This document shows positions 29,580-43,183 of a stretch of 64,000 nt of DNA, piece after piece. The stretch lies in the NCBI RefSeq assembly GCF_003319125.1, contig NZ_QOHG01000018.1, forward strand, positions 24,506-88,505, in the 5' to 3' direction. Below the pieces are notes generated by a model that saw only the letters and a program-made list of their open reading frames with translations, did not search any database and was not told where the DNA came from. Both the position numbers and the translations under genes were made by a program. Numbering within the stretch: the stretch's first letter is position 1; each line of letters opens with the position of its first letter. This DNA is from Blastococcus sp. TF02A-26. Lineage in GTDB: Bacteria; Actinomycetota; Actinomycetes; Mycobacteriales; Geodermatophilaceae.

Positions 29580-29652
29580 GGGCCTCTAGCTCAACTGGCA
29601 GAGCAGCGGACTTTTAATCCGCGGGTTGTCGGTTCAAATCCGACGGGGCCCA
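29580..29652 (+). tRNA. tRNA-Lys (TTT), prophage integration site
   Basis: Acceptor GGGCCTC pairs with GGGGCCC, anticodon loop CTTTTAA with TTT at 29613-29615, T-arm GTCGG-TTCAAAT-CCGAC. The prophage is joined within the anticodon arm, so the 3' half from about 29616 is phage-supplied. CCA is not encoded. The antisense strand of the 3' half codes for the end of the phage repressor. Confidence 0.95.
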
Positions 29653-29943
29653 CCCAGCGTCACCATCCGGCTCGGGCACCACCCATTCGGTGGGCAGGAG
29701 CTCGGCCGGCGCGATCCCGAGCGCGCGGGCGATCAGCTCCAGGTCGTCGAGGTCGATCGGCACCTGGCCGTTGAGGCGCTTGCCGACCCAGAAGTCGTTG
29801 CGACCGACAGCACGACCGAGCTCGCGGTTCGTGATGCCGTGCCGGCGAAGCAGGACCCGCAGGTCCTCAGCCACCTGTCCGGCGTAGGTCCGAGTCGGTC
29901 GGCCCGGCACTTCCCGAAGTCGATCACCTTGCAGCAGTCCCAT
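29614..29943 (-). CDS. Phage immunity repressor (HTH), truncated by integration
   Basis: 109 residues in the integrated state. An XRE-type HTH spans about residues 22-83 (LRVLLRRHGITNRELGRAVG, then a recognition helix with DFWVGKRLNG). The last residues, SDLNRQPAD, are read antisense through the tRNA-Lys 3' half, and the TAA stop (29614-29616) depends on the host base at 29614. In the circular phage the base there would be G on the plus strand and the frame continues 40 codons (see 63705-63827). ATG at 29943, divergent from the Cro-like gene. Role as repressor is inferred from position and fold. Confidence 0.8.
   Translation of the reverse strand: MGLLQGDRLREVPGRPTRTYAGQVAEDLRVLLRRHGITNRELGRAVGRNDFWVGKRLNGQVPIDLDDLELIARALGIAPAELLPTEWVVPEPDGDAGWAPSDLNRQPAD
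29615..29629. other. attL core
   Basis: TAATCCGCGGGTTGT in the tRNA-Lys anticodon arm, identical to 63826-63840. A further 11-base identity (ACGGGGCCCAC) follows at 29643-29653 and 63854-63864. The 24 positions from core to end include five mismatches, all in the T-arm. Confidence 0.9.
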
Positions 29944-30057
29944 GGGTGCAAGTTAGCCCATAGAGCGCGGGCGCGCCTACCTCCTTGGCTACGCAGACAC
30001 GCCGAAGCGGCCACTTTCGGTGGACGCCCGTCAGCCGATAGAGCTAACTTGAGCGGC
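29944..30057. promoter_or_regulatory. Repressor/Cro divergent control region
   Basis: 114 bases between divergent HTH genes. A perfect 9-base inverted pair, CAAGTTAGC (29949-29957) and GCTAACTTG (30043-30051), lies at each edge. On each gene's own strand this reads GCTAACTTG, placing a TAACTT -10-like hexamer 6-7 bases before the start codon, which implies leaderless mRNAs. TGGACG at 30021-30026 is a fair -35 for the Cro side at 18-base spacing. The GCTAACTTG sites may also be operators. Confidence 0.6.
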
Positions 30058-30060
30058 GTG

Positions 30061-30315
30061 ATGAGCAGGTCCACAGACCCGGTCGAGCGAGTCGCGGCCA
30101 ACGTGCGAGCCGAGCTGGGGCGACAGCGGCGCACTCGCCGGCAGCTCGCAGCGGCGATGAAGTCCGACGAGCACCGCGTCAGCAAGCGGGTCCGCGGGCT
30201 GGTGCCGTTCTCCGCGGACGAGATCGTGCAGGTCGCCCGTTTCCTCGACGTCACCGTCGAGGAGCTCGTCGACCTGCCGCGGACGCCGGTCGGCAGCACG
30301 GCCGGTGCGGCGTGA
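30061..30315 (+). CDS. Cro-like HTH regulator
   Basis: 84 residues, small HTH protein (RVAANVRAELGRQRRTRRQL, then HRVSKRVRGLVPFSADEIVQ). A GTG at 30058 directly before the ATG could be the leaderless start. Divergent from the repressor, as cro genes are; first gene of the rightward early transcript. The stop overlaps the next GTG. Confidence 0.75.
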   Translation: MSRSTDPVERVAANVRAELGRQRRTRRQLAAAMKSDEHRVSKRVRGLVPFSADEIVQVARFLDVTVEELVDLPRTPVGSTAGAA

Positions 30316-30782
30316 ACTCCTCAGCCCTGCCGTCGCGGTTCTGGGCGAAGGTCGACCGGTCGGGCGAATGCTGGCTCTGGACGGGAGCGGTCACGTCGGC
30401 CGGCTACGGGTCCTGGTCCAGCGACGGTCACCGCCTCAGCCCGCACCGGGTGACCTACGAGGCCGTCCACGGTCCGATCCCGGACGGCCTGCAGATCGAC
30501 CACCTGTGCCGCGTCCGTCTCTGCGTGAACCCCCAGCACCTCGAGGCGGTGACCCCGCAGGTCAACGTGCTCCGCAGCGAGGCCCCGACCGCCTACCTGG
30601 CCCGGCAGACGCACTGCCTCCGCGACCACGAGCTCGCCGGGGACAACCTGCTGATCCAGACCCGGCACGGTCGCCCGGTCGGCCGGGAGTGCCGGAGGTG
30701 CCGGGACGACGCCCGAGCTCGGCGGCGGACCGGTCGCCCGGTCGGCCGGCCGTCCCGCCTCCCCACGGTCGGTGTCGCGTGA
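30312..30782 (+). CDS. HNH homing-type endonuclease
   Basis: 156 residues. GECWLWTGAVTSAGYGSW, HRVTYEAVHGPIPDGLQIDH, LCRVRLCVNPQHLEAVT match the zinc HNH nucleases of actinophages (NUMOD-like to HNH_3). A second cysteine pair (CLRDHELAGDN and CRRCRDD) follows. GTG overlaps the Cro stop and its stop overlaps the next GTG. Confidence 0.85.
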   Translation: MNSSALPSRFWAKVDRSGECWLWTGAVTSAGYGSWSSDGHRLSPHRVTYEAVHGPIPDGLQIDHLCRVRLCVNPQHLEAVTPQVNVLRSEAPTAYLARQTHCLRDHELAGDNLLIQTRHGRPVGRECRRCRDDARARRRTGRPVGRPSRLPTVGVA

Positions 30783-31525
30783 CCGCGGACGCGACCTTCG
30801 GTGACGGGGACTATTTGTCCGAGGCAGGTAGGCGCGAGGTCCTCCGGGCCTCGAGCGCGGCTCGCAGTGAGGTGATCGCGCGACTCAACCGGGTCGCCTC
30901 CGTCTCCGAGACGGTCAGGGACGTAGTCGAGTACTGCCGCCTCGCCGCGCGCGGCCGACCGGAGGTCCGCCTTCTTGAGCGGGCCGCGCTGGCCGCAGCC
31001 GCTCACGAGATCGAGCAGCTGGACCAGGCGGTCGCTCAGTACGAGCGGCTGGACCCGTCCAGCGGCTCGCCGAGCCCAGTCGCCGCCTCTGAGTTCTGGG
31101 CGTGGCTCGACGAGCCGTGGACGCCCGGGTCAGGTCCCCGACGAGAAGTCGGGGATGTGGATGTCCGGCTCGTCGTTGGTGATCGCGACGGGGATGCCGC
31201 CGCCCATCAGGAAGGCGCTCTCGATGCCGTCGGCGAGTCGGATGTTCCGCCACGCCTGGGTCGCGCTGCCGGCGGCGTTGGTCAGCGCCACGAGGTCGGT
31301 GTGGTTGTGCAGCCGGAAGGAGTCCCCGGCGTAGTGCAACAGGAGCGGCATGAGTCGTCCTCTTCGGTCGAGAGCCCCGGCGCTGGCACGCCGGATCGCT
31401 CGCGGTCGACCGTAGGGGCGCCCACCGACAGGGCCGGGGTCCCTCTTCGGGCCGGTTCCTCGGTGGGTCGGCGGTCCCGGAGGTTGCTTGCGCGCCTCCG
31501 GGGCCGCTCCACCCGGGCGCGCTGA
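30779..31525 (+). CDS. Unknown early protein; only the N-terminal part looks genuine
   Basis: GTG start overlapping the HNH stop. About the first 118 residues (to FWAWLDEPWTPGSG) look like a normal alpha-helical protein (SETVRDVVEYCRLAARGRPE). The remaining 130 residues are the antisense reading of the minus-strand gene 31130-31351 and of the following non-coding DNA, so the original stop may be lost. Function unknown. Confidence 0.45.
   Translation: MTADATFGDGDYLSEAGRREVLRASSAARSEVIARLNRVASVSETVRDVVEYCRLAARGRPEVRLLERAALAAAAHEIEQLDQAVAQYERLDPSSGSPSPVAASEFWAWLDEPWTPGSGPRREVGDVDVRLVVGDRDGDAAAHQEGALDAVGESDVPPRLGRAAGGVGQRHEVGVVVQPEGVPGVVQQERHESSSSVESPGAGTPDRSRSTVGAPTDRAGVPLRAGSSVGRRSRRLLARLRGRSTRAR
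31130..31351 (-). CDS. Small phage protein of unknown function
   Basis: 73 residues, MPLLLHYAGDSFRLHNHTDL start, beta-rich, with no membrane helix. AGAGGA lies seven bases before the ATG. It is the only minus-strand gene in the early region. The 269 bases upstream (31352-31620) hold nested GC-rich inverted repeats (CCCACCGA near 31411 and TCGGTGGG near 31462) and should contain promoters for both directions. Confidence 0.6.
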   Translation of the reverse strand: MPLLLHYAGDSFRLHNHTDLVALTNAAGSATQAWRNIRLADGIESAFLMGGGIPVAITNDEPDIHIPDFSSGT

Positions 31526-31620
31526 CGCCGGCGCCTTGAAGACCAGCGCCGCCCGTTCCCCGGGATCCGACTCCTGGGCGTGCTGAGCGGGCGGCGCCGA
31601 CCCCCACCAGGAAGGTTCCC

Positions 31621-31758
31621 ATGTCACACCCGCCCAGCCAGCCCGCGACGCAGGGCCGACACCGTCCCCGCCCCGACGGCCTGTCCCCCGAGGCGCTGGT
31701 CGCCGAGATCGCCCGTCGCGACGCCGCGGCCCGCGCGACCCGGATCGCAGCCCGATGA
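31621..31758 (+). CDS. Small phage protein
   Basis: 45 residues. ATG at 31621 preceded by AGGAAGG, and its TGA overlaps the next ATG. Basic, with a helical C-terminus (LSPEALVAEIARRDAAARAT). Supported mainly by ribosome site and coupling. Confidence 0.5.
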   Translation: MSHPPSQPATQGRHRPRPDGLSPEALVAEIARRDAAARATRIAAR

Positions 31759-32018
31759 CCGCCACCGCCACGGTGCGCGGCCGTCCCCCGATCCCGGCGA
31801 CCGGCGCGGGGGGACTCGACGACGCGCCGGTCGCCGGCACCACCCCGCCGGCCGCGCGGCACGCCGCTGGGTCGACGTCCCGCGCGTCGTCCTGGCCGCG
31901 CCGGGCGACGTGTGGGCAGGGGATCTCGACCACCGGCCCTGGGCTCGCGTTCTCGACGTGCGTCCTGTCCCCCGGCCACCTCGGCACCTGCCTGCCGGCG
32001 CCGGGGGTGCCGGCATGA
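31755..32018 (+). CDS. Small phage protein with three cysteines
   Basis: 87 residues, ATGA overlaps on both sides. The C-terminal part, CGQGISTTGPGLAFSTCVLS then PGHLGTCLPAP, has spaced Cys/His that could bind zinc. Composition of the first half is weakly protein-like, so confidence rests on the overlaps. Confidence 0.4.
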   Translation: MTATATVRGRPPIPATGAGGLDDAPVAGTTPPAARHAAGSTSRASSWPRRATCGQGISTTGPGLAFSTCVLSPGHLGTCLPAPGVPA

Positions 32019-32326
32019 CCGCGACCATCGGCGCCGACGGTCGCCCGGCTGCAGCGCCCGACCCGAAGCTGACGCCGGCCCGCCTGGCCCGGGCCAGCGA
32101 GCAGTTCGCCTCCGACGTCGCCTACGCCACGAAGGCGGAGGAGCACGTCTGGGTCGTCGCCGTCACCCACACCATCACCGTCGACGACGCCCGCTCCTGG
32201 ACCGAAGGCGGCCAGGTCGTCCTCGGACCGGACTCGATCGTGCTCACGCACGTCCGGTGCTTCCGGTGCTTCACGTCGTTCGAGCCGCGGCTGGTGGGCA
32301 AGCGGTGCCGGGGGGCCCGGCAGTGA
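32015..32326 (+). CDS. Small phage protein with CxxC
   Basis: 103 residues. A helical N-terminus (LTPARLARASEQFASDVAYA) and a C-terminal VRCFRCFTSFEPRLVGKRC segment that may bind zinc. ATG overlaps the upstream TGA; its TGA overlaps the ParB-like GTG. Function unknown. Confidence 0.6.
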   Translation: MTATIGADGRPAAAPDPKLTPARLARASEQFASDVAYATKAEEHVWVVAVTHTITVDDARSWTEGGQVVLGPDSIVLTHVRCFRCFTSFEPRLVGKRCRGARQ

Positions 32327-33783
32327 CCGCCGTCCCCGCGATCGGTCAGGACGTCGTCGACGTCGACGTCGAGCTGCTCGACCCCTGGGAGCTGACCGCG
32401 CACCCGCGCAACGTCCGCGTCGACCTGGGCGACCTCACCGGCCTCACCGCCTCGATCGCCGCGCAGGGAGTACTCGAGCCGCTCATCGTCGTGCCGCTGC
32501 CCGACGGCGGGCACCTGCTCATCGCCGGCCACCGCCGTGCCGCGGCTGCCCTCGCCGCCGAGCTCAAGCGGGTGCCGTGCATCGTCCGCCGCGACCTGGC
32601 CGCCGACGTCGACGACGACCGGGTCCAAGCCGAGCACGTCGGCGCGATGCTCGCCGAGAACCTGCACCGCCAGAACCTCACCGCGGTGGAGGAGGCCCGC
32701 GGCGTCCAGACGATGCTCGACCTCGGCTTCGACGTCGCCGACGTCACCGCCCGCACCGGCCTCGACCGGTCCCGGGTCCTCAAGGCCTCCGGCGTCGCCC
32801 GCCTCGCCCCGGCCGCGGCCGCCGCAGTGGCCGACGCTGGACTGACCCTGGACCAGGCCGCCGTCGTCGTCCGCTACGAGGACAGCCCGGACGTGGTCGA
32901 CCAGCTCGTCACCGCGGCGGGGGAGGGACCCGGCCGCTTCGCGCACGCCGTCACCCGCGCCGAGCAGGACCGCCAGCTCGCCGAGGCCGTCGCGACCAAG
33001 CGCGCCGAGCTCGAGGCAGCCGGCCGACGAGTCCTCCAGGAGGAAGGCCCGGGCCAGCAGCAGGCTGAGCGCCTCTTCAACCTGCTGCAGGACGGCAACA
33101 CCGTCGACGCCGAGCAGCACGCCAGCTGTCCCGGGTCGGCCGTCGCGATCAGCGGCCGGCACTGGGGCGGCGAGATCGAGATCCGCGAGGACGAGGTCTG
33201 CACCGACCCGGCCGGCAACGGGCACAGCCAGCGGTGGGGGAGAGACCCGCGCGGCACTCCGGGGTCGTCGATGTCGGACGAGGAGCTCGAGCGGCAGCGC
33301 GCCGAGCGACGCGAGGTCATCGCGAACAACAAGGCGATGGCCGCGGCGAACACCACCCGGCGGGCGTGGCTCCGGGAGTACTTCTGCCGGACCAAGGCGC
33401 CCAAGGAGGTCCTGCGCTTCGCCGTCGAGGCGATCGCCGCGCACCCCGACGCCCTCTACGAGTGGACGTCCGGGATGGCCTCGCAGGAGGCCGAGCACGC
33501 CTGGACCGAGCTGGGCCTGGAGAAGCCACGCCGCTACGGGCCGGCGTCGACCAGCCCCTCGCTGACCAACGGCGAGCACGTCACCGACGCCCGGCTGCCG
33601 CTGCAGCTGTTCGCCCACGTCGCCGCCGGCATCGAAGGCGGGATGACGAAGGAGGCGTGGCGCAAGGGCGACCACCGCCGCGACCGCTTCGTCAGCTGGC
33701 TGAGCTTCCTGGTCGACCAGGGCTACGAGCTTTCCGACATCGAGCAGCAGATCGTCGGTCGACCGAAGCGGAAGGCGCGATGA
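32323..33783 (+). CDS. ParB/Srx-fold DNA-binding protein
   Basis: 486 residues. A ParB N-terminal domain (about 10-120: NVRVDLGDLTGLTASIAAQG, LLIAGHRRAAAA, AENLHRQNLTAVEEARGVQ) with an HTH (about 125-200), followed by a long extension with a Cys/His patch (ASCPGSAV and ISGRHW) and a helical C-domain (RAWLREYFCRTKAPKEVLRF). It could act in plasmid-like segregation, transcription or replication. Phage ParB-like proteins of this size are not well characterised. GTG start, overlapped on both ends. Confidence 0.8.
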   Translation: MTAVPAIGQDVVDVDVELLDPWELTAHPRNVRVDLGDLTGLTASIAAQGVLEPLIVVPLPDGGHLLIAGHRRAAAALAAELKRVPCIVRRDLAADVDDDRVQAEHVGAMLAENLHRQNLTAVEEARGVQTMLDLGFDVADVTARTGLDRSRVLKASGVARLAPAAAAAVADAGLTLDQAAVVVRYEDSPDVVDQLVTAAGEGPGRFAHAVTRAEQDRQLAEAVATKRAELEAAGRRVLQEEGPGQQQAERLFNLLQDGNTVDAEQHASCPGSAVAISGRHWGGEIEIREDEVCTDPAGNGHSQRWGRDPRGTPGSSMSDEELERQRAERREVIANNKAMAAANTTRRAWLREYFCRTKAPKEVLRFAVEAIAAHPDALYEWTSGMASQEAEHAWTELGLEKPRRYGPASTSPSLTNGEHVTDARLPLQLFAHVAAGIEGGMTKEAWRKGDHRRDRFVSWLSFLVDQGYELSDIEQQIVGRPKRKAR

Positions 33784-34340
33784 CCGCGCCGCAGTACCTC
33801 GACGTCCCGCGGTTCAGCGCGCCGGCACTGTGCGCCGAGACCGATCCCGACCAGTTCATCCCCGAGAAGGGCGGCTCCGTCCGGGACGCGAAGCGGCTGT
33901 GTGGGGGCTGCGAGGCTCGCGACGAGTGCCTGGACTACGCGCTCGATCACCGCCTCGTGCAGACCTGGGACGGCGTCTGGGGCGGCACCACCCCGCGACA
34001 GCGGAAGCAGCTGCTCCGCGAGCGGCCGGCCCTGCAGCCGGCAACGTCGGCTCCCCAGCCCGTCGAGCGCGTCGTCGCGCCACCGGCGGCCGCGCCCGCG
34101 CTGCCCGTGCCAGCTCCGGTCGACCCGGCACCTGTCGCCCTGCCGACCCGCATCGCGCCGGCCGCGCACGCCGCGACGACGTCTGGGCGGAGGCGCTGGA
34201 CCGACGAGGAGCTCGCCGCCGCCGTCGACGCCTGCAGCCGGGCAGGCCTGACTCGTCGGGTCGAGATCGCGGCCGCGCTCGGCGTCAGCGTCACCGCGGT
34301 GCGCAGGGTCGCCGCCCACGTCCCGGACGTGGCCGCGTGA
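33780..34340 (+). CDS. WhiB-family iron-sulfur regulator with C-terminal HTH extension
   Basis: 186 residues. WhiB cysteines at about 18, 41, 44 and 50 (ALCAETDPDQF, LCGGCEARDEC) and the turn motif DGVWGGTTPRQR. WhiB proteins bind 4Fe-4S and partner with sigma factors; phage copies can reset host transcription. Unusually, a Pro/Ala linker leads to a second region (RRWTDEELAAAVDACSRAGL, then VEIAAALGVSVTAVRRVA) that looks like an HTH. Confidence 0.9.
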   Translation: MTAPQYLDVPRFSAPALCAETDPDQFIPEKGGSVRDAKRLCGGCEARDECLDYALDHRLVQTWDGVWGGTTPRQRKQLLRERPALQPATSAPQPVERVVAPPAAAPALPVPAPVDPAPVALPTRIAPAAHAATTSGRRRWTDEELAAAVDACSRAGLTRRVEIAAALGVSVTAVRRVAAHVPDVAA

Positions 34341-34468
34341 GCGTGCCCGCGGCCGAGCTCGAGCCGGTCGACCACGTCGAGGGGCAGCTGCAGCTGCCCC
34401 TGCGAGCCGACGTCGTCCCGGACGCCGAGCTCCGGGACGGCGACCAGGACGACGCGAGGTGGTCGTGA
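34337..34468 (+). CDS. Short acidic phage protein
   Basis: 43 residues (VSVPAAELEPVDHVEGQLQL start), acidic. GTG overlaps the whiB stop; its TGA overlaps the next ATG (TGATG). No function visible. Confidence 0.45.
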   Translation: MSVPAAELEPVDHVEGQLQLPLRADVVPDAELRDGDQDDARWS

Positions 34469-34851
34469 TGTGGACACCGCCGAACGAGTGCCCCCGCTGC
34501 GGTGGGGAGGTGCTCTGGGGCTACACCGAGAACGGGAAGCGCATGGCGATCGACCCGGCCCGCTACCCCGACGACGACACCCAGGCGAACCAGGCTGTCT
34601 ACGTCGACCACCTGCGCCGGCTCCGGATCCGGCAGCTGTCCAAGGCGCGGCCGCTGGCGTCGTTCGAGCACCGCGCCATGCCGCACGTCGCGACCTGTCC
34701 GGCCGAGATCCGCGACCGGCAGGCCCGCGCCGCGGCGGCGTCCCGGCCGGCCCGACGCGGGACCCGCGGTCGAGGTCGCGGTGGCGGCCACCAAACGCGC
34801 GGGGCGGCGTCGCTCGTCATCGACCTGAGCAGCCGGCGGATCCTGCGGTGA
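34468..34851 (+). CDS. Phage zinc-ribbon-like protein
   Basis: 127 residues. N-terminal PPNECPRCGGEVLWGYTENG zinc motif, later HVATCPAEIRD, then a basic Arg/Gly tail. The ATG at 34468 has GAGGTGG upstream, preferred to a GTG nine bases earlier. It probably binds nucleic acid. Confidence 0.6.
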   Translation: MWTPPNECPRCGGEVLWGYTENGKRMAIDPARYPDDDTQANQAVYVDHLRRLRIRQLSKARPLASFEHRAMPHVATCPAEIRDRQARAAAASRPARRGTRGRGRGGGHQTRGAASLVIDLSSRRILR

Positions 34852-35102
34852 ACTTCGAGCTGATCTTCGGCCTGGGAGCGCCTCTCGCCACCGTGCTGCT
34901 GATCGCCAGGTGGCTGATCAACCACACAGGGCCTGTCCGACCGAAAGCGGCCAGTGCCTGCGGATGTGGACACGACTTCGCCTTCCACGACCTGGCCAAC
35001 GGCACCTGCGGCGGTCTCGACGTACGGACCCGGCCCGGGTACTACTCCCTCACAGAGTCCGTCGGATGCGGCTGCAAGCAGTTCACCGGGACCGTCCGAT
35101 GA
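34848..35102 (+). CDS. Small membrane protein with cysteine motifs
   Basis: 84 residues. One helix (LIFGLGAPLATVLLIARWLI), then CGCGHDFAFHDLANGTCGG and VGCGCKQF, likely metal-binding. GTG start overlapping the previous TGA. Function unknown. Confidence 0.55.
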   Translation: MNFELIFGLGAPLATVLLIARWLINHTGPVRPKAASACGCGHDFAFHDLANGTCGGLDVRTRPGYYSLTESVGCGCKQFTGTVR

Positions 35103-35401
35103 GCGCAGCCACCGGCGACGCCCGGAACGACACGGTCGCCGAGGTGCGCGCCGTCGTCGACGAGATGCGGGCCGAGATGGCGGACTGGGACCCGGCGAAC
35201 CCGCAGACCCGCGTGCTGGCCGGCTTCATCCGGCTGCTCGAGCTGGCCGTCCACGATGCCGCCGGTGTCGAGGCGCAGAACGAGCGCACCCGTCGGCGAG
35301 CGGAGGTGGTCGGCGGCGATGGCCACACCTGGGTGATGCACCACCAGGAGTGGTCGGTGGCGATCGGCATCGCCGATGCCTGGCGGGACGGGCACCAGTG
35401 A
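35099..35401 (+). CDS. Small phage protein
   Basis: 100 residues, helical (VAEVRAVVDEMRAEMADWDP, RVLAGFIRLLELAVHDAAGV). ATG overlaps the upstream stop and the stop overlaps the next GTG. No family recognised. Confidence 0.55.
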   Translation: MSAATGDARNDTVAEVRAVVDEMRAEMADWDPANPQTRVLAGFIRLLELAVHDAAGVEAQNERTRRRAEVVGGDGHTWVMHHQEWSVAIGIADAWRDGHQ

Positions 35402-35682
35402 CGTCACCGTCGCCGTCGGCGCCCGAGCCGTCCGAAGCCGACTGGGAGACCGCCCAGGCGGTCGCCGGCGGGTGGTTCTACGGCCCCGACGGTCAGACGC
35501 TCAGCGTCAACGAACTGATCAAGGCGATCGCCCTGGTCGTCGCCGCGGCGCGCACCGCGGGCCTGCACGACGGCCGCCTGCAGCAGCTCACCGCCGACGA
35601 CCGCCGGAACCTCGCCGCGGTCTACGGCTACGAGGCCGGCCTCGCCGACGGCCCTGGCCAACCGGGGCCGGCCGTGACCTGA
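35398..35682 (+). CDS. Small phage protein
   Basis: 94 residues. Helical core with LSVNELIKAIALVVAAARTA. Ends an unbroken chain of overlapping genes from 31621. The 100 bases after it carry only the next ribosome site. Function unknown. Confidence 0.5.
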   Translation: MTSPSPSAPEPSEADWETAQAVAGGWFYGPDGQTLSVNELIKAIALVVAAARTAGLHDGRLQQLTADDRRNLAAVYGYEAGLADGPGQPGPAVT

Positions 35683-35782
35683 CACGGACCCGCCCCGATC
35701 CCCCTGATCCGACCTGGGCGGGCCCGCCTGACCACGTGCCCGCCGCTCTTCCCGCCTCCGCGCAGCGAAGGAGTCCCCCGCC

Positions 35783-36055
35783 ATGCCCACCCCTGAACGG
35801 GCCGAGTTCGAACGGCTGGTCCGCGCTGGCGTCACCCCTCGGGTGGCCGCCACCATCGCGCTCGAGCAACGTGACCGCCGCCGGGGCCCCGGCCGTCCCG
35901 CCCTCGCGCGAGAGCACGGCACCAACCGGGGCTACCACCAGCACAGGAGCCGCGGCGAGGACGCCTGTGCGCCGTGCTTGGACGCCCACGCCGCCTGCTT
36001 CAACCTCAGCGACCGCCGCCTCCGGCAGGTCCACGCGACACGGGTCGCAGCATGA
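35783..36055 (+). CDS. Small phage zinc-finger-like protein
   Basis: 90 residues. AGGAG before ATG 35783. RGYHQHRSRGEDACAPCLDA matches a motif found in many actinophage small proteins (His plus CxxC). Its basic character suggests nucleic-acid binding. TGA overlaps the ATG of the replication gene. Confidence 0.65.
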   Translation: MPTPERAEFERLVRAGVTPRVAATIALEQRDRRRGPGRPALAREHGTNRGYHQHRSRGEDACAPCLDAHAACFNLSDRRLRQVHATRVAA

Positions 36056-37077
36056 CCGCCGCGAAGCGCCTGAAGTGGGTCGCGTTCCCCCTGAACATCA
36101 GCGACGACCCGCGGATGCTCGCCGCCGGCGAACCCGCGGAGGTCCTCTGGACCCGGGCCTGGACCTGGTGCGGCAAGTACGCCCTCGACGGCCGCATCCC
36201 GAAGGGCATCGTCGCCCGGCTGGCCCCCGACGACACGGCTGCCCGCGTCGAGGCGCTCCTGGAGGAGGAGCTCTGGGTCGACGAGGGCGACTGCTACCTG
36301 GTGGCCGACTGGGAGGAGGTCATCGGCTCGGTCAAGGGGCTCAACGCCCAGCAGAAGGCCGCCGCGGACCGCTCCAAGAAGTACCGCCAGAACGTGAAGG
36401 CCAAGGCCGAACGCCTCGCGGTCGAGGCCGGCCAGACCTCCCTGCTGGTCCCCGCGTCACGTGACGCGTCACGTGACGCCGCCGCGACGGCAGCGCCCTC
36501 CCTCACCGTCGTGCCCGATCCCGCCGACACGAACGACGGCGACGCCGAACCGGGCGAGGCACTGACCTGCACGGACCCCGCGTCACGTGACGCGTCACGT
36601 CACGCGTCACGTGACGCGTCACGCCCCGAATCACGCCCTAGAAGGAGAAGAAGAACTACTACCCCCCTACCCCCCCTCGCGAGCGAGGGGGGAACCGATC
36701 CCGCTCCCTCGTCGACCAGCCCGCCGGCCGCTGCGCGACCGAGCGCCGGCTGCGACCCCGTCGCGCAGCCGCACGCCGGCTGCCGCGGCTGCGGCACTAA
36801 CACCCGGGCCGGCCGACGAGCCGCCGCCGCGGCGGCCGCGGTGACCGCTGAGCAGGAGCGGATCCGCGCCGAGCGCGAGCGGGCCGCCGCCGCCCAGGCC
36901 GAGCGTCAGCGCGCCGTCGACGCCTGCGAGGCCTGCGACACCGCCGGCTACCTGTCGACCGGCCAGCCCTGCGACCACGTGCGCACCCCAGGCGCAGCCG
37001 AGCGAGGCGCCCGCGGCGTCGCAAAGTGCCGAGCCGAGCTCGCCGCACGGACCCGACCGCCGGCGGTGAGCGCGTGA
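36052..37077 (+). CDS. Putative replication initiation protein (replisome-organiser-like)
   Basis: 341 residues. The N-terminal domain (about 1-110: LKWVAFPLNISDDPRMLAAG, LWTRAWTWCGKYALDGRIPK) looks like the winged N-domain of phage replisome organisers. A low-complexity middle carries repeated ASRDASRDA, encoded by the iteron-like repeats. The C-terminus is a charged helix (ERIRAERERAAAAQAERQRA) plus Cys motifs (ACEACDTAG). By analogy with lambda O, a protein with its origin inside its own gene. Confidence 0.65.
   Translation: MTAAKRLKWVAFPLNISDDPRMLAAGEPAEVLWTRAWTWCGKYALDGRIPKGIVARLAPDDTAARVEALLEEELWVDEGDCYLVADWEEVIGSVKGLNAQQKAAADRSKKYRQNVKAKAERLAVEAGQTSLLVPASRDASRDAAATAAPSLTVVPDPADTNDGDAEPGEALTCTDPASRDASRHASRDASRPESRPRRRRRTTTPLPPLASEGGTDPAPSSTSPPAAARPSAGCDPVAQPHAGCRGCGTNTRAGRRAAAAAAAVTAEQERIRAERERAAAAQAERQRAVDACEACDTAGYLSTGQPCDHVRTPGAAERGARGVAKCRAELAARTRPPAVSA
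36454..36622 (+). repeat. Iteron-like 12-base repeats inside the replication gene
   Basis: Unit GCGTCACGTGAC. Two tandem copies at 36454-36477; then four adjoining units at 36580-36615, one of them variant (GCGTCACGTCAC at 36592), plus a partial unit to 36622. A purine-rich, lower-GC stretch (36640-36660) and a perfect 10-base-stem hairpin (CCCCCCTCGC, loop GA, 36671-36692) follow. Candidate replication origin. Confidence 0.7.
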
Positions 37078-37376
37078 TCCTGTCCCGCCGCGACGGCCAG
37101 ACCCCGCCGCCCGACCCGGACCCGTGGCTCACCGCCGGCGAGGTCGCCGAACTGCTCCGGGTCTCGCCCGCGACCGTCTACCGCCTCGTCGACGCCCGCG
37201 AGCTGCAGTCGAAGCGGATCCGCCGGTCCGTCCGGATCCGCCGGTCCTGGGTCACCGCGTACCTGCGCGCCAACCAGGTGACCGAGCTGCCCGTCACGCC
37301 ACCGGACGGGCAGCCGCGGCCGCCGCCCGGCGCGCGCGACCACCGACATGTAGGGCAAGGCCCTGGCCTTGCGTAA
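37074..37376 (+). CDS. Excisionase-like HTH protein
   Basis: 100 residues. DNA-binding domain WLTAGEVAELLRVSPATVYR, VDARELQSKRIRRSVRIRRS, matching the HTH_17/excisionase fold. GTG overlaps the replication gene stop. It may be the excisionase or a regulator; it lies far from attL and attR in the prophage map. Confidence 0.75.
   Translation: MILSRRDGQTPPPDPDPWLTAGEVAELLRVSPATVYRLVDARELQSKRIRRSVRIRRSWVTAYLRANQVTELPVTPPDGQPRPPPGARDHRHVGQGPGLA
37355..37372 (+). terminator. Small hairpin at the end of the HTH gene
   Basis: GCAAGGCC and GGCCTTGC, 8-base arms, two-base loop, overlapping the HTH stop and 43 bases before the capsid ATG. Weak terminator or processing site. Confidence 0.4.
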
Positions 37377-37415
37377 CGATCTGGTCACCCCCACCCGAGA
37401 GGACCTTCCCCAGCC

Positions 37416-38891
37416 ATGACTCCCGACCAGTACCGCGAGCGCATCCGCGAGGCCCTCGCGCAGCGGACCATCCACGAGAACACCGTCAGCACCGTCCGGG
37501 CCGCCATCGGCACCGGCGAGCCCACCGAGGCCCAGGCCACCCAGCTGCGGGAGGCCCGCGCCGCCGTCGCCGCCGTCGACGCCCAGATCGACCAGCTGTC
37601 GGCCGGCCTGAACGACGCCCTGGAGGAGGAGCGCCGCGAGGCCCGCGCCGCCGAGCTGCGCCGCGAGCTCGTCCCCGCCGGCGAGACCCGCACCGAGCGC
37701 CCCGCCGGCGGCGCCCGCGTCACCAGCGAGGAGCGCACCTACACCGCGCACAAGTCCTCCCGCGGCGAGGTGAGCTTCTTCGTCGACCTCTACCGCATGA
37801 GCCACAACGGCGACCTGTCCGCCCGCGCCCGCCTCGAGCGGCACGGGCAGGAGGTCGTCGTCGAGGGGGAGGGGATGAGCGAGCGCGCCGCGTCGACCGG
37901 CTCGTTCGCCGGCCTCGTCGCCCCGCAGTACCTGGTCGACCTCGCCGCCCCGGTCCTGCGCAGCGGCCGGCCCGTCGCCAACGCCGTCCAGGGCCTGCCG
38001 CTGCCCGAGCAGGGCATGGTCCTGACCATCCCCCGCGGCACCACCGGCGCCAGCGCGGCGTCACAGACGGCGGAGAACGCCGCGGTGTCCAACACCGACC
38101 AGGTCTACACCGACCTGCAGGTGCCGGTGCGGACCATCGCCGGCCAGCAGGACATCTCCCGCCAGTCCCTCGAGCGCGGCTCCCCCGGCCTCGACGAGCT
38201 CACCTACCTCGACCTGGCGGCGGCCTACCACGCCGAGCTCGACCGGCAGGTCGTCAACGGGTCGGGCACGGGCAACCAGATGCTGGGGATGCTGCAGACC
38301 ACCGGCCGGCTCATCGCGGCGGCCTACGGCGCCGCCATCACGCCGGGCCTGTTCAACCTCAAGGTCGCCGGGGCGATCGCCAACATGGCCGGCGCCGGCA
38401 CCCGCATCAACCCGAACCTGATCATCGCCGCCGCCCGGCGCTGGGGCTGGCTCACCGGGCAGATGGACTCCGCCGGCCGGCCCCTGGTCGTCCCCGGCGT
38501 CGGCGGCCCGATGAACGTGCTCGCGCTCAACACCAACCCCGGCGCCTACGGCGGGGGGAGCGGCGACGGCACGGACACCGAGAGCTTCGTGACGCCCGGC
38601 TCCCTCCAGGGCCTGCCCCTGGTCACCGACGGGAACGTCCCGACCAACATCGGGACCAACGTCGAGGACGTCGCGTTCGTCGTCGACCGCAGCCAGTGCC
38701 TGCTGTGGGAGGAGGGAGACCGCCAGCCCAGGCAGCTGCGGTTCGACCAGACCGGCGGCGGCTCGCTCACGGTGAAGCTCGTCGTCTACGGCTACGCGGC
38801 CTTCACCTCCGGCCGCTACCCCGGCGCCGTCGCGCAGATCGGCGGCGTCGACGCCACCGCCGGCCAGGGCCAGGTCGCCCCGACCTTCTGA
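37416..38891 (+). CDS. HK97-fold major capsid protein
   Basis: 491 residues. An N-terminal coiled-coil delta/scaffold region (about 1-105: TGEPTEAQATQLREARAAVA) precedes the HK97 fold with SFAGLVAPQYLVDLAAPVLR, AYHAELDRQVVNGSGTGNQM and INPNLIIAAARRWGW. The N-part is presumably cut off by the protease at 46884. Its ribosome site lies before ATG 37416. It is unusually far from portal and protease. Confidence 0.93.
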   Translation: MTPDQYRERIREALAQRTIHENTVSTVRAAIGTGEPTEAQATQLREARAAVAAVDAQIDQLSAGLNDALEEERREARAAELRRELVPAGETRTERPAGGARVTSEERTYTAHKSSRGEVSFFVDLYRMSHNGDLSARARLERHGQEVVVEGEGMSERAASTGSFAGLVAPQYLVDLAAPVLRSGRPVANAVQGLPLPEQGMVLTIPRGTTGASAASQTAENAAVSNTDQVYTDLQVPVRTIAGQQDISRQSLERGSPGLDELTYLDLAAAYHAELDRQVVNGSGTGNQMLGMLQTTGRLIAAAYGAAITPGLFNLKVAGAIANMAGAGTRINPNLIIAAARRWGWLTGQMDSAGRPLVVPGVGGPMNVLALNTNPGAYGGGSGDGTDTESFVTPGSLQGLPLVTDGNVPTNIGTNVEDVAFVVDRSQCLLWEEGDRQPRQLRFDQTGGGSLTVKLVVYGYAAFTSGRYPGAVAQIGGVDATAGQGQVAPTF

Positions 38892-38901
38892 CCCGACCAG
38901 C

Positions 38902-38942
38902 CCCGGCGGGCCGCGGCGCTTCCCCGGCCGCGGCCCGCCGGG
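38902..38942 (+). terminator. Terminator after the major capsid gene
   Basis: Perfect 16-base stem (CCCGGCGGGCCGCGGC and complement) with a nine-base loop, 10 bases after the capsid stop. It should limit transcription beyond this abundant-protein gene. Confidence 0.8.
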
Positions 38943-38951
38943 CCCCACCCC

Positions 38952-38975
38952 CGACCGTTCAGGACTGAACGGTCG
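38952..38975. repeat. Recurrent phage palindrome, copy 1
   Basis: CGACCGTTCAG-GA-CTGAACGGTCG, perfect 11-base arms, two-base loop. Nearly identical to 48160-48183 and related to 50104-50127. Intergenic. Confidence 0.8.
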
Positions 38976-39000
38976 ACCCCGACCAGGAGACGAGGTCCCC

Positions 39001-39429
39001 GTGACCAGCTTCGAGATGACCATCCCGGACCACGTCCGGGAGAACTACACCGACGCACGCATCGCCCAGGGCCTCACCTGGGAGCAGATGGCCGAGCAGT
39101 TCGACCGCGACGCCGAGCCGCTCCCGGCCGAGCACGCCGCCCCCTACCTCGAGCTCGCCGCCTGGGCCCGAGCCCAGGGCATCGCCGAGGCCACGGAGGA
39201 CCTCGACGACGACCCGGACGACCACGACCCGGACGACGGCGACCCGGACGACGAGCCCGCCGACGTCGACGCCGCGGCCGCGGACGGCGACGGCGCGGAC
39301 GTCGCCGCGGCCGCCGAAGCTGCCGAGGCCGAGCGGGGCGGGGAGACGCCGGCGCCCGAGGAGCCGGCCGCGCCGACCAAGCCGCGGAAGCGCGCCGCCA
39401 CCCCGACCACCCCGACCCGCTCCGCCTGA
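39001..39429 (+). CDS. Acidic phage structural-region protein
   Basis: 142 residues. Helical N-terminus (NYTDARIAQGLTWEQMAEQF), then a very Asp/Glu/Ala-rich middle and a basic C-tail (KPRKRAATP). GTG start with AGGAG 14 bases upstream region. Proteins like this often follow capsid genes; function unknown. Confidence 0.65.
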   Translation: MTSFEMTIPDHVRENYTDARIAQGLTWEQMAEQFDRDAEPLPAEHAAPYLELAAWARAQGIAEATEDLDDDPDDHDPDDGDPDDEPADVDAAAADGDGADVAAAAEAAEAERGGETPAPEEPAAPTKPRKRAATPTTPTRSA

Positions 39430-39460
39430 GCCGGCCCGACCTAGGAGGAGGAGCGCGGCG

Positions 39461-39994
39461 GTGGCCCTGACGCTCGACAACCTCGCCACGTTCCTCAACC
39501 TGCCGGGGAACGTCGCCCCGACCGACCCGGCCGAGCGCGCCGAGCTGCAGCGGCACTTCGACGCGGCGCTCAAGCACGTCCGCTCGCGGTGCGGCCAGGC
39601 GATCGAGGGGACCAGCACGCTGCGGGTCACCTCGGCGTCCGGCAGCACCGCGCTGCTCCTGCCGGCCATCAACTTCGACAGCGTCACCGCCGTCGTCGCA
39701 CCAGACGGCGTCACCGTCACGCCCACCGAGGTCGACGAGCTCGCCGGCATCGTCCGCGTCCCCGTCGGCCAGCGCGGCACCTGGCGGGTCACCATCACCT
39801 CGACGCAGGCGCAGGTCGACCTCGAGGAAGCGACGCTCATCATCGCCGGGCACCTGAACGAGACCCAGCGCCGCAGCCGCCCCCAAGGTGGACGACCCGG
39901 CGCCCCGGCGCAGCCGGCCGGCGGCAGCGGCTTCGCCATCCCGCACCGCGCCGCCGACCTGATGGCTCCCTACGCACTGGCGGCGCTGGCGTGA
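39461..39994 (+). CDS. Head-tail connector protein (gp6-like)
   Basis: 177 residues. VALTLDNLATFLNLPGNVAP, helical, with LKHVRSRCGQAIEG and a C-terminal APYALAALA, the pattern of HK97 gp6-type adaptors that extend the portal. GTG after AGGAGGAG. Confidence 0.8.
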   Translation: MALTLDNLATFLNLPGNVAPTDPAERAELQRHFDAALKHVRSRCGQAIEGTSTLRVTSASGSTALLLPAINFDSVTAVVAPDGVTVTPTEVDELAGIVRVPVGQRGTWRVTITSTQAQVDLEEATLIIAGHLNETQRRSRPQGGRPGAPAQPAGGSGFAIPHRAADLMAPYALAALA

Positions 39995-40464
39995 TCACCG
40001 ACGGCCAGGCCGTCGACGTCGTCGCCGACCTGCTCAACACCGTGGCCGCCACCGCGCAGATCATCGACCCCGACGGCCAGGCCCTCGACGTCGTCGTCTT
40101 CGACGGCCCCGACGGCCGGGCCGAGTACGCGCCCATCTGGCTCGCCGTCGGCACCCCCTGGCAGGACGACCAGCAGGCCGTCACCACCGTCGAGGAGACC
40201 CTCGGCGCCGGCCGGCGCGCACGCGTCACCCACTCGGTCGCCTGCACCGGCTACGTCGCCTCCGGCGCCCTCGACTTCACCGAGTGGCGCCGCCAGGCCG
40301 GCCAGCTCCTCGCCGCCGTCCGCGCCCACCTCGACGGCGACCCGACGCTCAGCGACCAGGTCGCCCGGGCCCGGCTCGGTGCCGACCGCCAGCTCGCCGA
40401 GGTCGCCGACCAGCAGGGCGCCGCGGTGATGATCGGCTTCACCGTCGAGCTGGTCCTGCTGTGA
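39991..40464 (+). CDS. Phage neck/tail-terminator-like protein
   Basis: 157 residues. Alpha-beta protein with EYAPIWLAVGTPWQ, ARVTHSVACTGYVASG and a C-terminal strand VMIGFTVELVLL. Size, order and fold pattern fit a tail terminator or neck protein. GTG overlaps the connector stop. Confidence 0.55.
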   Translation: MITDGQAVDVVADLLNTVAATAQIIDPDGQALDVVVFDGPDGRAEYAPIWLAVGTPWQDDQQAVTTVEETLGAGRRARVTHSVACTGYVASGALDFTEWRRQAGQLLAAVRAHLDGDPTLSDQVARARLGADRQLAEVADQQGAAVMIGFTVELVLL

Positions 40465-40619
40465 TCCAGGTCGACGTGCGCGGCTCGCGCTTCACGGCGG
40501 ACTGGCGCTCACTCGGACGGGCGCAGCCGCTGGCCATCGGGCTCTGGATCGACCGTCGCGGCACGGTGCAGCTGACCCTCGGCCGACTGTACCTCGGCCA
40601 CTACCGGCGGCCCTGGTGA
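40461..40619 (+). CDS. Short phage protein
   Basis: 52 residues, beta-rich (VIQVDVRGSRFTADWRSLGR), GTG overlapping the previous stop. Unknown. The 145 bases after it contain no gene I can support. Confidence 0.5.
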   Translation: MIQVDVRGSRFTADWRSLGRAQPLAIGLWIDRRGTVQLTLGRLYLGHYRRPW

Positions 40620-40764
40620 CCTGCTCGGCCGCGGAGAGCAGGGGCGCCGGGGACGCCTGCAGCGGCGGGGGCAGCGCGCTGTAGGGACCTGCCAGGCGGC
40701 GGGGGAGACGTAGGGACGCCTGGTCCTGGCGTGACCACCCGCAGCGCGGGGAACCTCACTAACT

Positions 40765-41103
40765 GTGACCACGTCGAAGAGCTCGCCTGCACCGGCCGCG
40801 ACCGTCCCGGTGGCGGTCGAGCTGCCGCGGGCCGACGTCGGCCCGCTGGTGCGGGCCTACAAGCGCGCGGAGAAGCGCGTCGCCGCGGCGAAGGAGGCCC
40901 AGGAGGCCGCCAAGGCCGCGCTGCTCGACGTGATGGGCGGCGCCGAGGTCCTCGCGATCGCCGAGACGCACCAGGCCGTCGCCGAGCACCGCGAGGTGCG
41001 GTCCATGGTCCTGGACCCGACCCGGCTCAAGGCCGAGCGGCCTCGCATCGCCGCCGCCTACCAGAAGCTGCGGATCCAGCGCCCCTTCAAGGTCCTGGTG
41101 TGA
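40765..41103 (+). CDS. Small phage protein resembling a recombinase-associated C-terminal segment
   Basis: 112 residues. A coiled coil (YKRAEKRVAAAKEAQEAAKA) and a tail EVRSMVLDPTRLKAERPRIA, pattern recalling the C-terminus of YqaJ-type viral exonucleases, without the nuclease domain. GTG start without a clear ribosome site. Resemblance is from memory only. Confidence 0.55.
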   Translation: MTTSKSSPAPAATVPVAVELPRADVGPLVRAYKRAEKRVAAAKEAQEAAKAALLDVMGGAEVLAIAETHQAVAEHREVRSMVLDPTRLKAERPRIAAAYQKLRIQRPFKVLV

Positions 41104-41864
41104 GCGACCAGCCGGTCGACACCGGCGACACCTGGCGCTGGGTCGACCGGCTCACCGAGTCCCGCCGGCGTCGTCTCGTCCGCCGTCCCGACGGCGGCCA
41201 GTCCACCGTCGAGCACGTCGACCTGCCCTCGCTGCTCGAGCAGCTCGCCGAGGCGCAGGCCTCAACCAACAGCGGCGGCGGCCGCGGCAAGTCCTCCGGC
41301 GGCTCCCGAGCCCCGCTCGACCTGACCATCACCTCGCTGCTGGCCGAGATCGAGACGCTGACCGTCGAGGCGCTCATCGCCTACGGCGACCGGCCCCGCT
41401 ACCGCGAGCGCGCCCGCTACCGGCAGGGCCGCGCCCGCGTCCTCGGCGTCCGCCAGCTCGACCTCGCGGCCAGCGTCCGCGCGCTGGCCGTCACCGTGGT
41501 GGACACCGAGGACGCCGACCTCATCGACTGGTGGGCCAGCCGCTTCTGCGCCTGGGTCCTGCGAGCTGAGGAGGCGCTCGACCTCGACGAGGACGGCAGC
41601 GTCGACGTCGTGCCCGTCCGCGGCGTCCCCTGCCCCGAGCCCGAGTGCGGCCGCGAGCACGTCCTCGAGGACCGCGACGGCGAGACCGTCCGCACCCCCG
41701 CCCTGGCCATCAGCTTCCGCGACGGCCAGGTCCTCCACGTCACCTGCAGGCACTGCGGCACCGGCTGGTGGCGAGGCGAGGGCCTCAACGCGCTCGCCGA
41801 CGCGATGGCCGCCACCGCCGCGCTCCCCTCCCCCGCAGTCGCCGACGAGGTCCCGTCCCCGTGA
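41100..41864 (+). CDS. Conserved actinophage zinc-ribbon protein (DUF7341-like)
   Basis: 254 residues. A helical part (SLLAEIETLTVEALIAYGDR, LDLAASVRALAVTVVDTEDA) and a zinc ribbon (CPEPECGREH, then CRHCGTGWW). Similar proteins occur in many mycobacteriophages near early genes; function unknown. Confidence 0.65.
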   Translation: MSDQPVDTGDTWRWVDRLTESRRRRLVRRPDGGQSTVEHVDLPSLLEQLAEAQASTNSGGGRGKSSGGSRAPLDLTITSLLAEIETLTVEALIAYGDRPRYRERARYRQGRARVLGVRQLDLAASVRALAVTVVDTEDADLIDWWASRFCAWVLRAEEALDLDEDGSVDVVPVRGVPCPEPECGREHVLEDRDGETVRTPALAISFRDGQVLHVTCRHCGTGWWRGEGLNALADAMAATAALPSPAVADEVPSP

Positions 41865-41935
41865 CGCCTGCGGTCGCCATGCTGCTCGTCGTGCTGCTCG
41901 TCCTGGCCCTGCTGGACGACCACCGACCGGCTTGA
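41861..41935 (+). CDS. Tiny membrane peptide
   Basis: 24 residues, VTPAVAMLLVVLLVLALLDD then HRPA: one helix. GTG overlaps the preceding stop. Could be real by coupling, but the length makes it uncertain. Confidence 0.35.
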   Translation: MTPAVAMLLVVLLVLALLDDHRPA

Positions 41936-41968
41936 CGTCGCGACACGTCGTAGATCGGCGGGCCCTGC

Positions 41969-42715
41969 TCAGCTGGCGATGGCGGATCCGTCGTGTTCGA
42001 CCGCGGTGGCAGGCGACGCGTCGTGCGCGGCCGCGCGGTACAGCTCCCAGGTCTTCCCGACGATGCCGGAGCCGGGGAACAGGTCGTCGAAGCTGTCCTC
42101 AGCCGTCGCGCCCACCAGGTCGAGCATCCAACGACAGAACGCCGGCGGCTTGGCTCCGATCACCCGAGACGGCAGCGTCGTCAGCGGGGTGACCCCGTGC
42201 GCGAGGACATCGACCCGTCGCTCTCCTTGAGCGCGCGACGGGACGGGCACGTAGACGACGGGCTCCCATCCGTTCACCGGGTAGCGAGCCGTCGCGTTCG
42301 GCCGAGCGCCACGCATCCAGGCCGCGACGCGTACCGGGAGGTCCTGCGCGACGGCTAGCGCGAGGACCTGAGGCAGCGCGGCGGCCGACGTAGACAGTGC
42401 CCAACCGTCGTATCTGGACAGGAGCGAGAGCAGCTGGGCGTGGTCGACCTCGCCGGCGTAGTCCGGGTGGCCGACGTACAGCCCGGCGTTCCCGGGGTAG
42501 GGCGGGTCCGCGTAGGCGAGCCGTCGCGGGAGGCCCTGCACGACGGATCCCGAGCTGCCCGACGCGGCAGATCCGTCGCGGGTGGCCACGGGCGACGCGT
42601 AGCGAGCCACTCGGTGTCGGGCCTGGCGGCACCGCTGGGAGCAGGTCACCGCGTCACGGCGTACGCCGGTCGGGATCTCACCGTCGCACCAGGCGCACGC
42701 TCGCACCCGTCGCAC
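41969..42715 (-). CDS. Phage DNA methyltransferase with N-terminal zinc finger
   Basis: 248 residues. N-terminal CAWCDGEIPTGVRRDAVTCS-QRC finger followed by a methylase domain with LAYADPPYPG (DPPY motif) and ATAEDSFDDLFPGSGIVGKT (SAM-binding FxGSG-like). Motif order DPPY before the SAM loop suggests a beta-class-like or permuted amino-methylase. GTG at 42715 chosen so the protein starts just before the finger. Opposite to flanking genes, so a separate transcription unit. Confidence 0.75.
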   Translation of the reverse strand: MRRVRACAWCDGEIPTGVRRDAVTCSQRCRQARHRVARYASPVATRDGSAASGSSGSVVQGLPRRLAYADPPYPGNAGLYVGHPDYAGEVDHAQLLSLLSRYDGWALSTSAAALPQVLALAVAQDLPVRVAAWMRGARPNATARYPVNGWEPVVYVPVPSRAQGERRVDVLAHGVTPLTTLPSRVIGAKPPAFCRWMLDLVGATAEDSFDDLFPGSGIVGKTWELYRAAAHDASPATAVEHDGSAIAS

Positions 42716-43155: not shown

Positions 43156-43183
43156 CCTGACCCGGGCGCGGCCGGCCTCGACC

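What the first reader, a model, noticed from the sequence alone, without database searches (positions are those of the whole stretch)
29614..29943. Repressor gene is cut by its own attachment site: integration-dependent immunity architecture
Seen directly: the minus-strand HTH gene ends at TAA (29614-29616), where one base, 29614, differs from the matching position 63825 at the right end. Joining the two cores as in the excised circle replaces TAA with TAC and the same frame runs 40 more codons to 63705. So the protein would be 149 residues in the phage and 109 in the prophage. Established: in mycobacteriophages such as BPs and Brujita the attP lies inside the repressor gene and only the integrated, shorter form is stable and active, because a degradation tag is lost. 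Inference: the same switch works here; the extension ends in SRMAAAS, not a canonical LAA tag.
Basis: partly seen in the sequence, partly recalled or inferred. Interest (0 to 1): 0.93.

Follow-up and report, generated by a model that had tools for sequence, protein, structure and literature searches.

The report
Repressor gene cut by viral integration
In this bacterium's chromosome sits a bacterial virus whose insertion site lies inside its own predicted repressor gene, so that joining the chromosome shortens the gene from a predicted 149 to 109 codons, which would likely switch immunity on only after insertion; the layout is known from other phages, but here the usual end tags that mark such proteins for destruction look blocked.

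Summary
Observation confirmed. A 34-kb prophage sits in tRNA-Lys(TTT). The minus-strand HTH gene has 109 codons at attL; joining the cores gives 149, because the host anticodon loop supplies the TAA stop (T29614) where the phage end has G63825.

The layout is a family trait: three of three prophages show it (window, G037, G096), and two metagenome phage contigs carry the uncut gene. In G037 the contig breaks imply that attP existed in the sequenced culture.

This is the known integration-dependent immunity architecture (BPs, Brujita), here in Geodermatophilaceae. attP position, host-made stop and tRNA site all fit.

In relatives the long repressor ends in [A/V]A (16 of 17 tails read) and the integrase in LRxxA (14 of 16). 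The window's phage is the lone exception for the repressor (AAAS, ancestral stop lost) and one of two for the integrase, which runs 22 residues further. Whether integration still controls repressor stability here is open. Tagless systems are in print for M. abscessus prophages (PMC8092301, passages).

The parts
29615..63840 (.). Prophage between the two attachment cores (about 34.2 kb), with terminase, portal, protease, capsid, tail, tape measure and endolysin genes
   Evidence: exact 15-bp core at both ends; PHROG hits for ten proteins scanned
29580..29654 (+). tRNA-Lys(TTT) rebuilt at attL: 5' part from the host, T-arm and 3' end supplied by the phage
   Evidence: ARAGORN; comparison with tRNA-Lys loci of relatives
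29615..29629 (+). attL core TAATCCGCGGGTTGT; T29614 just before it gives the antisense TAA stop
63826..63840 (+). attR core TAATCCGCGGGTTGT; G63825 just before it gives TAC in the phage form
63841..63864 (+). Host 3' end of tRNA-Lys left at attR
   Evidence: T-arm identical to 22 of 30 tRNA-Lys loci read in relatives
29614..29943 (-). Predicted immunity repressor, prophage form, 109 codons, HTH (PF13560/PF13443; PHROG transcriptional repressor), ending ..NRQPAD at the tRNA anticodon
   Evidence: MGLLQ start shared with homologues
63705..63827 (-). [quoted passage not shown] GC by codon position 0.70/0.53/0.88
29949..29957 (+). Operator-like CAAGTTAGC upstream of the repressor start
   Evidence: only two copies in the window, 0.00 expected
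30043..30051 (-). Second, inverted operator-like CAAGTTAGC before the divergent gene
30061..30315 (+). Divergent HTH gene, Cro-like by position (84 aa)
63367..63708 (-). First gene after the repressor tail in the excised form (113 aa); GTG start overlaps the tail's TGA by 4 bases
62858..63385 (-). Gene between repressor and integrase, unknown (175 aa)
62587..62853 (-). Gene between repressor and integrase, phrog_7527 with weak ParB-like similarity (88 aa)
62123..62590 (-). Gene between repressor and integrase, unknown (155 aa)
61446..62126 (-). Gene between repressor and integrase, phrog_9210 (226 aa)
60338..61339 (-). Tyrosine integrase (PF00589), starts at the core-binding region, no other N-terminal domain hit; C-terminus runs 22 residues past the position where relatives end in LRxxA
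60353..60392 (-). Strong hairpin (terminator-like) now inside the integrase reading frame; in L010 a comparable hairpin lies just after the integrase stop

Best explanation
The attachment site of this prophage lies inside its predicted repressor gene, so integration into the host tRNA-Lys gene replaces the 40-codon 3' end by a host-supplied stop codon and would likely turn an unstable 149-residue protein into a stable 109-residue immunity repressor. Shown: the truncation, the base that makes the stop (antisense of the last two anticodon bases and their 3' neighbour), the same layout in relatives, and the integrase downstream on the same strand. Inferred from BPs-type phages: in the free phage the long protein is removed by host proteolysis through its C-terminus, lytic genes run, and only recombination at attP makes the tail-less protein, which would bind the inverted CAAGTTAGC sites between it and the divergent Cro-like gene. 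In the relatives read the tail ends in [A/V]A, and in most the integrase ends in LRxxA, like the host tmRNA tag (ADSNQRDFALAA). In the window's phage both ends are capped, so here proteolysis would be weaker or use another signal.
For: The joined frame is 149 codons against 109 in the prophage; attB is an intact tRNA and attP is not. Three of three prophages carry the same switch of frame. Two phage contigs carry the uncut gene naturally, L010 and L095. Database homologues fall into two sets: five end exactly at QPAD (the window's own, and P0009, which matches G037's protein, included) and eleven run on through YK... 16 of 17 extended tails end in [A/V]A, the window being the exception; in the first 14 counted, 12 end AA against 6 of 50 other gene calls of this prophage. 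The tail motif RPLLPRR is kept with synonymous codon changes between G037 and L010. 14 of 16 close integrases end in LRxxA; 13 of the 15 aligned end at one column. Host tmRNA tag ends ALAA in G000, G037 and G096. In G037 contigs C8, C20 and C17 overlap by exactly 127 bases and break at the base where attL and attP differ. Inverted CAAGTTAGC pair only in the repressor/Cro-like gap. AlphaFold model of P0008: confident HTH region (to about residue 70), low-confidence tail. The published rule is that the short form is stable and active (PMC4557955 introduction; PMC9262239 section 9).
Against: The window's long form ends AAAS and its integrase ends GVG, so neither has the tag that relatives carry. 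A-ending C-termini are common anyway: 16 of 50 other gene calls of the prophage and 62 of the 120 listed integrase homologues. No stability, binding or immunity measurement exists. Five genes lie between repressor and integrase. An excisionase-like gene (37074-37376) is present, which the classic systems are said to lack (PMC9262239). Window contig C13 spans both att sites without a break, so there is no sign of excision in that culture. The stop/start overlap also occurs in 3 of 8 control frames, and codon-position GC is not coding-like in G037's tail.
Confidence: 0.6

Rival explanations
1. Capped switch: the phage inherited the architecture, but a lost stop codon in each gene capped both tags, so the 149-residue repressor and the integrase would be stable and immunity would no longer depend on integration (a natural high-lysogeny variant).
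For: Six of six relatives with DNA have GC(G/C)-TGATG at the repressor end, while the window reads GCG-TCG-TGA, adding one Ser. The window integrase and metagenome homologue P0026 (88% identical) share the same read-through extension. A stabilised BPs repressor lysogenises more often (PMC4557955 introduction).
Against: Tagless repressors and integrases are reported in M. abscessus systems presumed to use other signals (PMC8092301, passages). Whether -AAAS blocks the host protease is unknown. The frame, attP position and stop are still intact.
Confidence: 0.25
2. The overlap is incidental: attP happens to lie at the 3' end of an HTH gene and both forms work alike.
For: GC-rich DNA leaves long open frames by chance; 3 of 8 control frames also show stop/start overlaps.
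Against: Shared frame, Tyr codon and [A/V]A ends in 16 of 17 tails, on two unrelated kinds of repressor head; synonymous changes in the tail motif.
Confidence: 0.07
3. Immunity is set by another HTH gene, such as 59073-59321 near the integrase or the divergent gene at 30061-30315, and the cut gene has another role.
For: 59073-59321 has the strongest hit to a PHROG repressor family (2.6e-18), and small HTH genes similar by eye sit near the integrase in G037 and L010. The divergent gene also hits that family.
Against: Position, divergence, operator-like sites and homologues annotated as immunity repressors in Gordonia phages TillyBobJoe and Meyran favour the cut gene.
Confidence: 0.08

Closest known systems
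Mycobacteriophage BPs/Brujita integration-dependent immunity (clusters G, I, N, P)
   Same: attP inside the repressor gene, shorter prophage form, tyrosine integrase downstream, divergent Cro-like gene; in BPs too the host base next to the core makes the stop (PMC9262239 section 9, PMC4557955 introduction)
   Different: Different tRNA site (tRNA-Lys; BPs tRNA-Arg); five genes between rep and int; no terminal AA on rep or int in this copy. Repressor sequences were not compared directly; mycobacteriophages did not appear in the organism tally
Gordonia phage Meyran gp34 (ON724009) and TillyBobJoe gp49
   Same: Named repressor relatives (34-36% identity over 68-70%); Meyran's repressor has ..GSNLGPADYK.. 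as here, which I read as antisense tRNA-Lys by analogy, and ends GLAAA, its integrase RDAA; TillyBobJoe ends GIAA and VAAA
   Different: Low identity; tags intact; one gene (TillyBobJoe) or none (Meyran) between rep and int
Gordonia cluster CW phages (GMA5, GRU3, Jeanie, McGonagall)
   Same: Published as integration-dependent with attB in tRNA-Lys; GMA5 has a gene between rep and int (PMC5559632 passages)
   Different: Not compared by sequence here
M. abscessus prophage systems MabC, MabH, MabN, MabO
   Same: Reported without AA tags on rep and int; in that set of systems int lies next to rep or 3-5 genes away; for MabC, MabN and MabO the stop is made by the first host base (PMC8092301 passages)
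   Different: Different host; not compared by sequence here

Membership tests
Integration-dependent immunity system | attP core lies within the repressor reading frame | tested here: met
   natural uncut genes in L010 and L095
Integration-dependent immunity system | Prophage form shorter because host sequence brings a stop at attL | tested here: met
   T29614 gives TAA; same in G037 and G096
Integration-dependent immunity system | Tyrosine integrase, tRNA attB, tRNA kept intact | tested here: met
   PF00589; intact tRNA at attL and attB
Integration-dependent immunity system | Repressor and integrase in one operon | tested here: inconclusive
   same strand, five overlapping or closely spaced genes between them; no transcript data
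Integration-dependent immunity system | Usual, not universal (PMC8092301 files members without it): ssrA-like C-terminal tag on the viral repressor | tested here: not met
   window AAAS; 16 of 17 tails of the family end [A/V]A. Member only in the wider sense of PMC8092301, not as a tagged BPs-type system
Integration-dependent immunity system | Usual, not universal: ssrA-like C-terminal tag on the integrase | tested here: not met
   window ends GVG; 14 of 16 close integrases end LRxxA
Integration-dependent immunity system | Integrase without arm-binding domain | tested here: inconclusive
   protein starts at the core-binding region and no extra N-terminal Pfam domain was hit
Integration-dependent immunity system | No recombination directionality factor | tested here: inconclusive
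   excisionase-like gene 37074-37376, phrog_66 E 1.4e-11
Integration-dependent immunity system | Short form stable and active, long form not | not testable with these tools
   needs expression and immunity assays

The most novel reading that the evidence does not exclude
A natural escape from the switch: in one lineage of a Geodermatophilaceae phage family the destruction tags of both the repressor and the integrase have been capped by lost stop codons, while attP still cuts the repressor gene. The phage would lysogenise without waiting for integration, which makes the family a ready-made comparison of tagged and capped versions of one switch. The same kind of integrase, att stretch and tail also carries two unrelated kinds of repressor head (L095 type and window type), so the attachment core may act as a joint at which immunity types are swapped.
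Probability: 0.3. Interest if true: 0.62.

Novelty: new member of a known kind. Interest (0 to 1): 0.45.

Why it matters
It carries integration-dependent immunity into Geodermatophilaceae, where the literature searches made here listed no report (listings only). It gives comparative support for the tail as protein: recurring ends, synonymous changes, two unrelated kinds of head. Assembly breaks in one relative imply that attP existed in the culture. The family holds tagged and capped versions of both proteins, so the question of how far proteolysis sets lysogeny becomes testable with natural variants.

Tried and rejected
Stop/start overlap as proof of the extended gene: rejected as proof, since 3 of 8 control frames show a similar overlap.

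Codon-position GC as proof: only a hint; clear in the window (0.70/0.53/0.88), absent in G037 (0.74/0.68/0.72).

Named phages with the same attP: a peptide search gave six chance-level Vibrio hits. A 71-base search matched 402 records, of which I saw 30: tRNA genes, and three unannotated faecal phage records (H47-H49, 79-92% identity) that were not followed.

More prophages: at E 1e-70, 3 of 112 family genomes and 3 of 397 sampled order genomes hold a close integrase, the same three each time.

Promoter and terminator consensus scan of the gap: nothing found. The repeat finder gave no inverted repeat there; the CAAGTTAGC pair was seen by eye and then counted, so its choice was after the fact.

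Structure: one model of P0008, mean pLDDT 65.9, used only for order against disorder; no fold search was run.

Broussard 2013 (Mol Cell) and Broussard and Hatfull 2013 are not held; what is said of them comes from PMC4557955, PMC9262239 and PMC8092301. PMC8092301 says the tagless repressors are 'similar to phage BPs', while PMC4557955 gives BPs an ssrA-like tag; I did not resolve this.

Rows dropped before counts: P0013 (the window's own attR frame), the five homologues ending at QPAD (not extended forms), L010 where it equals P0008, and repeat fetches of the same contigs (L092, L093, L151, L152). Of the 17 tails, five (window, G037, G096, L096, L097) are read at attR. The integrase count (16) is P0018-P0032 plus the window; the search had 449 hits and listed 120, of which 62 end in A. 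The 15 rows of A4 leave out P0030. The binomial (12 of 14, 6e-10) treats related sequences as independent, was made before L095-L097 were added, and is not a probability. The 30 tRNA-Lys loci were a capped return of 42 matched genomes of 59 searched; they include tRNA-Lys(CTT) genes, and I did not check each for a prophage.

Full report
What is there. The window holds a prophage of about 34.2 kb between two copies of TAATCCGCGGGTTGT (29615-29629 and 63826-63840). The left copy is inside a complete tRNA-Lys(TTT), 29580-29654. Terminase, portal, head protease, capsid, tail, tape measure and endolysin genes were recognised among ten proteins scanned, so the phage looks complete. The host is in the same family as the genome G037, which I infer to be Blastococcus sp. 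CT_GayMR16, that is Geodermatophilaceae; the host itself is not named.

The cut gene. The minus-strand gene 29943-29614 encodes 109 residues with an HTH domain (PF13560, PF13443; PHROG repressor families). Its last codons are read from the antisense of the tRNA..NRQPAD, then TAA, where TAA is the antisense of the last two anticodon bases and their 3' neighbour. At the right end the base before the core is G, not T, so the joined frame reads TAC and continues 40 codons to TGA at 63707-63705. Joining the host flanks gives an intact tRNA-Lys; joining the phage flanks gives none. The right-hand T-arm equals that of 22 of 30 tRNA-Lys loci read from relatives. TAA stands at the anticodon in 30 of 30, but the search pattern contained those bases, so this is partly built in. 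The phage therefore brings its own T-arm, and the host brings the stop.

Relatives. Two further prophages in the same tRNA gene (G037, and G096, inferred to be Blastococcus sp. CCUG 61487 from a protein record) show T at attL and G at attR, a prophage form ending at QPAD, and a joined frame continuing 47 and 53 codons. With the window they are the only close integrase carriers among 112 family genomes at E 1e-70. Two metagenome phage contigs, L010 (40.6 kb) and L095 (36.1 kb), contain the gene uncut. Protein searches gave eleven homologues that run on through YK.. and five, the window's included, that stop exactly at QPAD.

attP in a culture. In G037 the contigs C8, C20 and C17 overlap by exactly 127 bases. 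C20 (40,378 bp; L009 title NODE_28, coverage 211) starts at the first base after the attL/attP difference and ends with the core. A graph assembler would break there if a second sequence enters the same node. The left node contains phage DNA beyond the core, so that sequence would be attP, from an excised circle or a tandem copy. This is inference from contig ends, not reads. The window's own contig runs through both sites unbroken.

The tail. Seventeen extended tails can be read: P0002, 3, 4, 5, 7, 8, 12, 14, 15, 16, 17, G037, G096, L095, L096, L097 and the window. Thirteen end in AA, three in VA (G096, L095, L096), and the window in AAAS. In an earlier set of 14, 12 ended AA, against 6 of 50 other gene calls in this prophage; 16 of those 50 end in A. 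The motif RPLLPRR recurs with synonymous codon differences (G037 against L010), which points to selection on protein; the window has only a faint trace of it. The host tmRNA tag is ADSNQRDFALAA in G000, G037 and G096. The AlphaFold model of P0008 has a confident HTH region up to about residue 70 and a low-confidence tail.

The integrase. It lies downstream on the same strand, with five gene calls between; G037 and G096 have one gene call in that interval. Of 16 close integrases (P0018-P0032 and the window), 14 end LRxxA; 13 of the 15 aligned end at one column. The window and P0026 instead continue LRVVSPADDKRPSPA.GWRWEGRS.VG. Because these proteins are related, a shared end may be descent rather than selection; in the wider list of 120, 62 end in A. 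The added stretch contains a hairpin (60353-60392); in L010 a comparable hairpin lies after the stop.

Capping of the repressor. In G037, G096, L010, L095, L096 and L097 (6 of 6 with DNA) the repressor ends in TGATG; in the first three the ATG opens a frame of 99 to 218 codons. In the window the same place reads TCGTGA. The simplest history is loss of the old stop, one added Ser, and a GTG start in place of ATG. So both proteins that relatives tag are capped here.

How it most likely works. By analogy with BPs (PMC4557955, abstract and introduction read; PMC9262239, section 9 read), the long form is made in the free phage and removed; integration makes the short, stable form, which represses the early promoter. 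Candidate operators are the only two CAAGTTAGC copies in the window, inverted, between the two divergent HTH genes. Shown: the anatomy. Inferred: repression, proteolysis, operators. Doubtful in this copy: the tag. M. abscessus systems without AA tags on either protein are in print and presumed to use other signals (PMC8092301, passages read), so absence of AA does not exclude the switch.

Swappable heads. [quoted passage not shown] Both kinds carry the same antisense-tRNA stretch and similar tails, and L095 has the same kind of integrase, ending LRVVA.

Membership. [quoted passage not shown] It is not filed as a tagged BPs-type system, because the tags on repressor and integrase were tested and not met. 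It still works like one in layout.

Comparison with print. Integration-dependent immunity is described or predicted for mycobacteriophages (PMC4557955, PMC9262239), Gordonia phages (PMC4929511, PMC5559632; passages), Bifidobacterium prophages (PMC6109161; passages) and M. abscessus prophages (PMC8092301, PMC9934374; passages). A stop made by the first host base, genes between rep and int, tRNA-Lys sites and tagless members are all known there. Not met in what I read: the host family, the capping of both tags within one phage family, and assembly evidence for attP. Searches for Geodermatophilaceae or Blastococcus with prophage terms listed no paper on this; only listings were seen.

Noticed in passing
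37416-38891 and 43957-47696: The major capsid gene lies about 5 kb upstream of terminase, portal and head protease, an unusual order for a tailed phage ('unusual' is recalled).
   Followed up: no
37074-37376: Excisionase-like HTH gene (phrog_66) placed just before the capsid gene, far from the integrase.
   Followed up: no
59073-59321: A third small HTH gene near the integrase, the strongest hit to a PHROG repressor family; genes similar by eye sit near the integrase in G037 and L010.
   Followed up: partly
60353-60392: Strong hairpin inside the integrase frame; the peptide over it is shared with metagenome homologue P0026.
   Followed up: partly
63865-64000: The contig ends 160 bases past the core; a 15-base stretch there, seen by eye, also follows tRNA-Lys in G012 (L053), possibly a repeat. 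A 20-base check of held loci printed no match.
   Followed up: partly
L095 1-6822: Phage contig with the same kind of integrase, att stretch and tail but an unrelated repressor head.
   Followed up: partly
41969-42541: Minus-strand gene resembling a DNA adenine methylase (by eye, DPPYPG motif) among plus-strand late genes.
   Followed up: no
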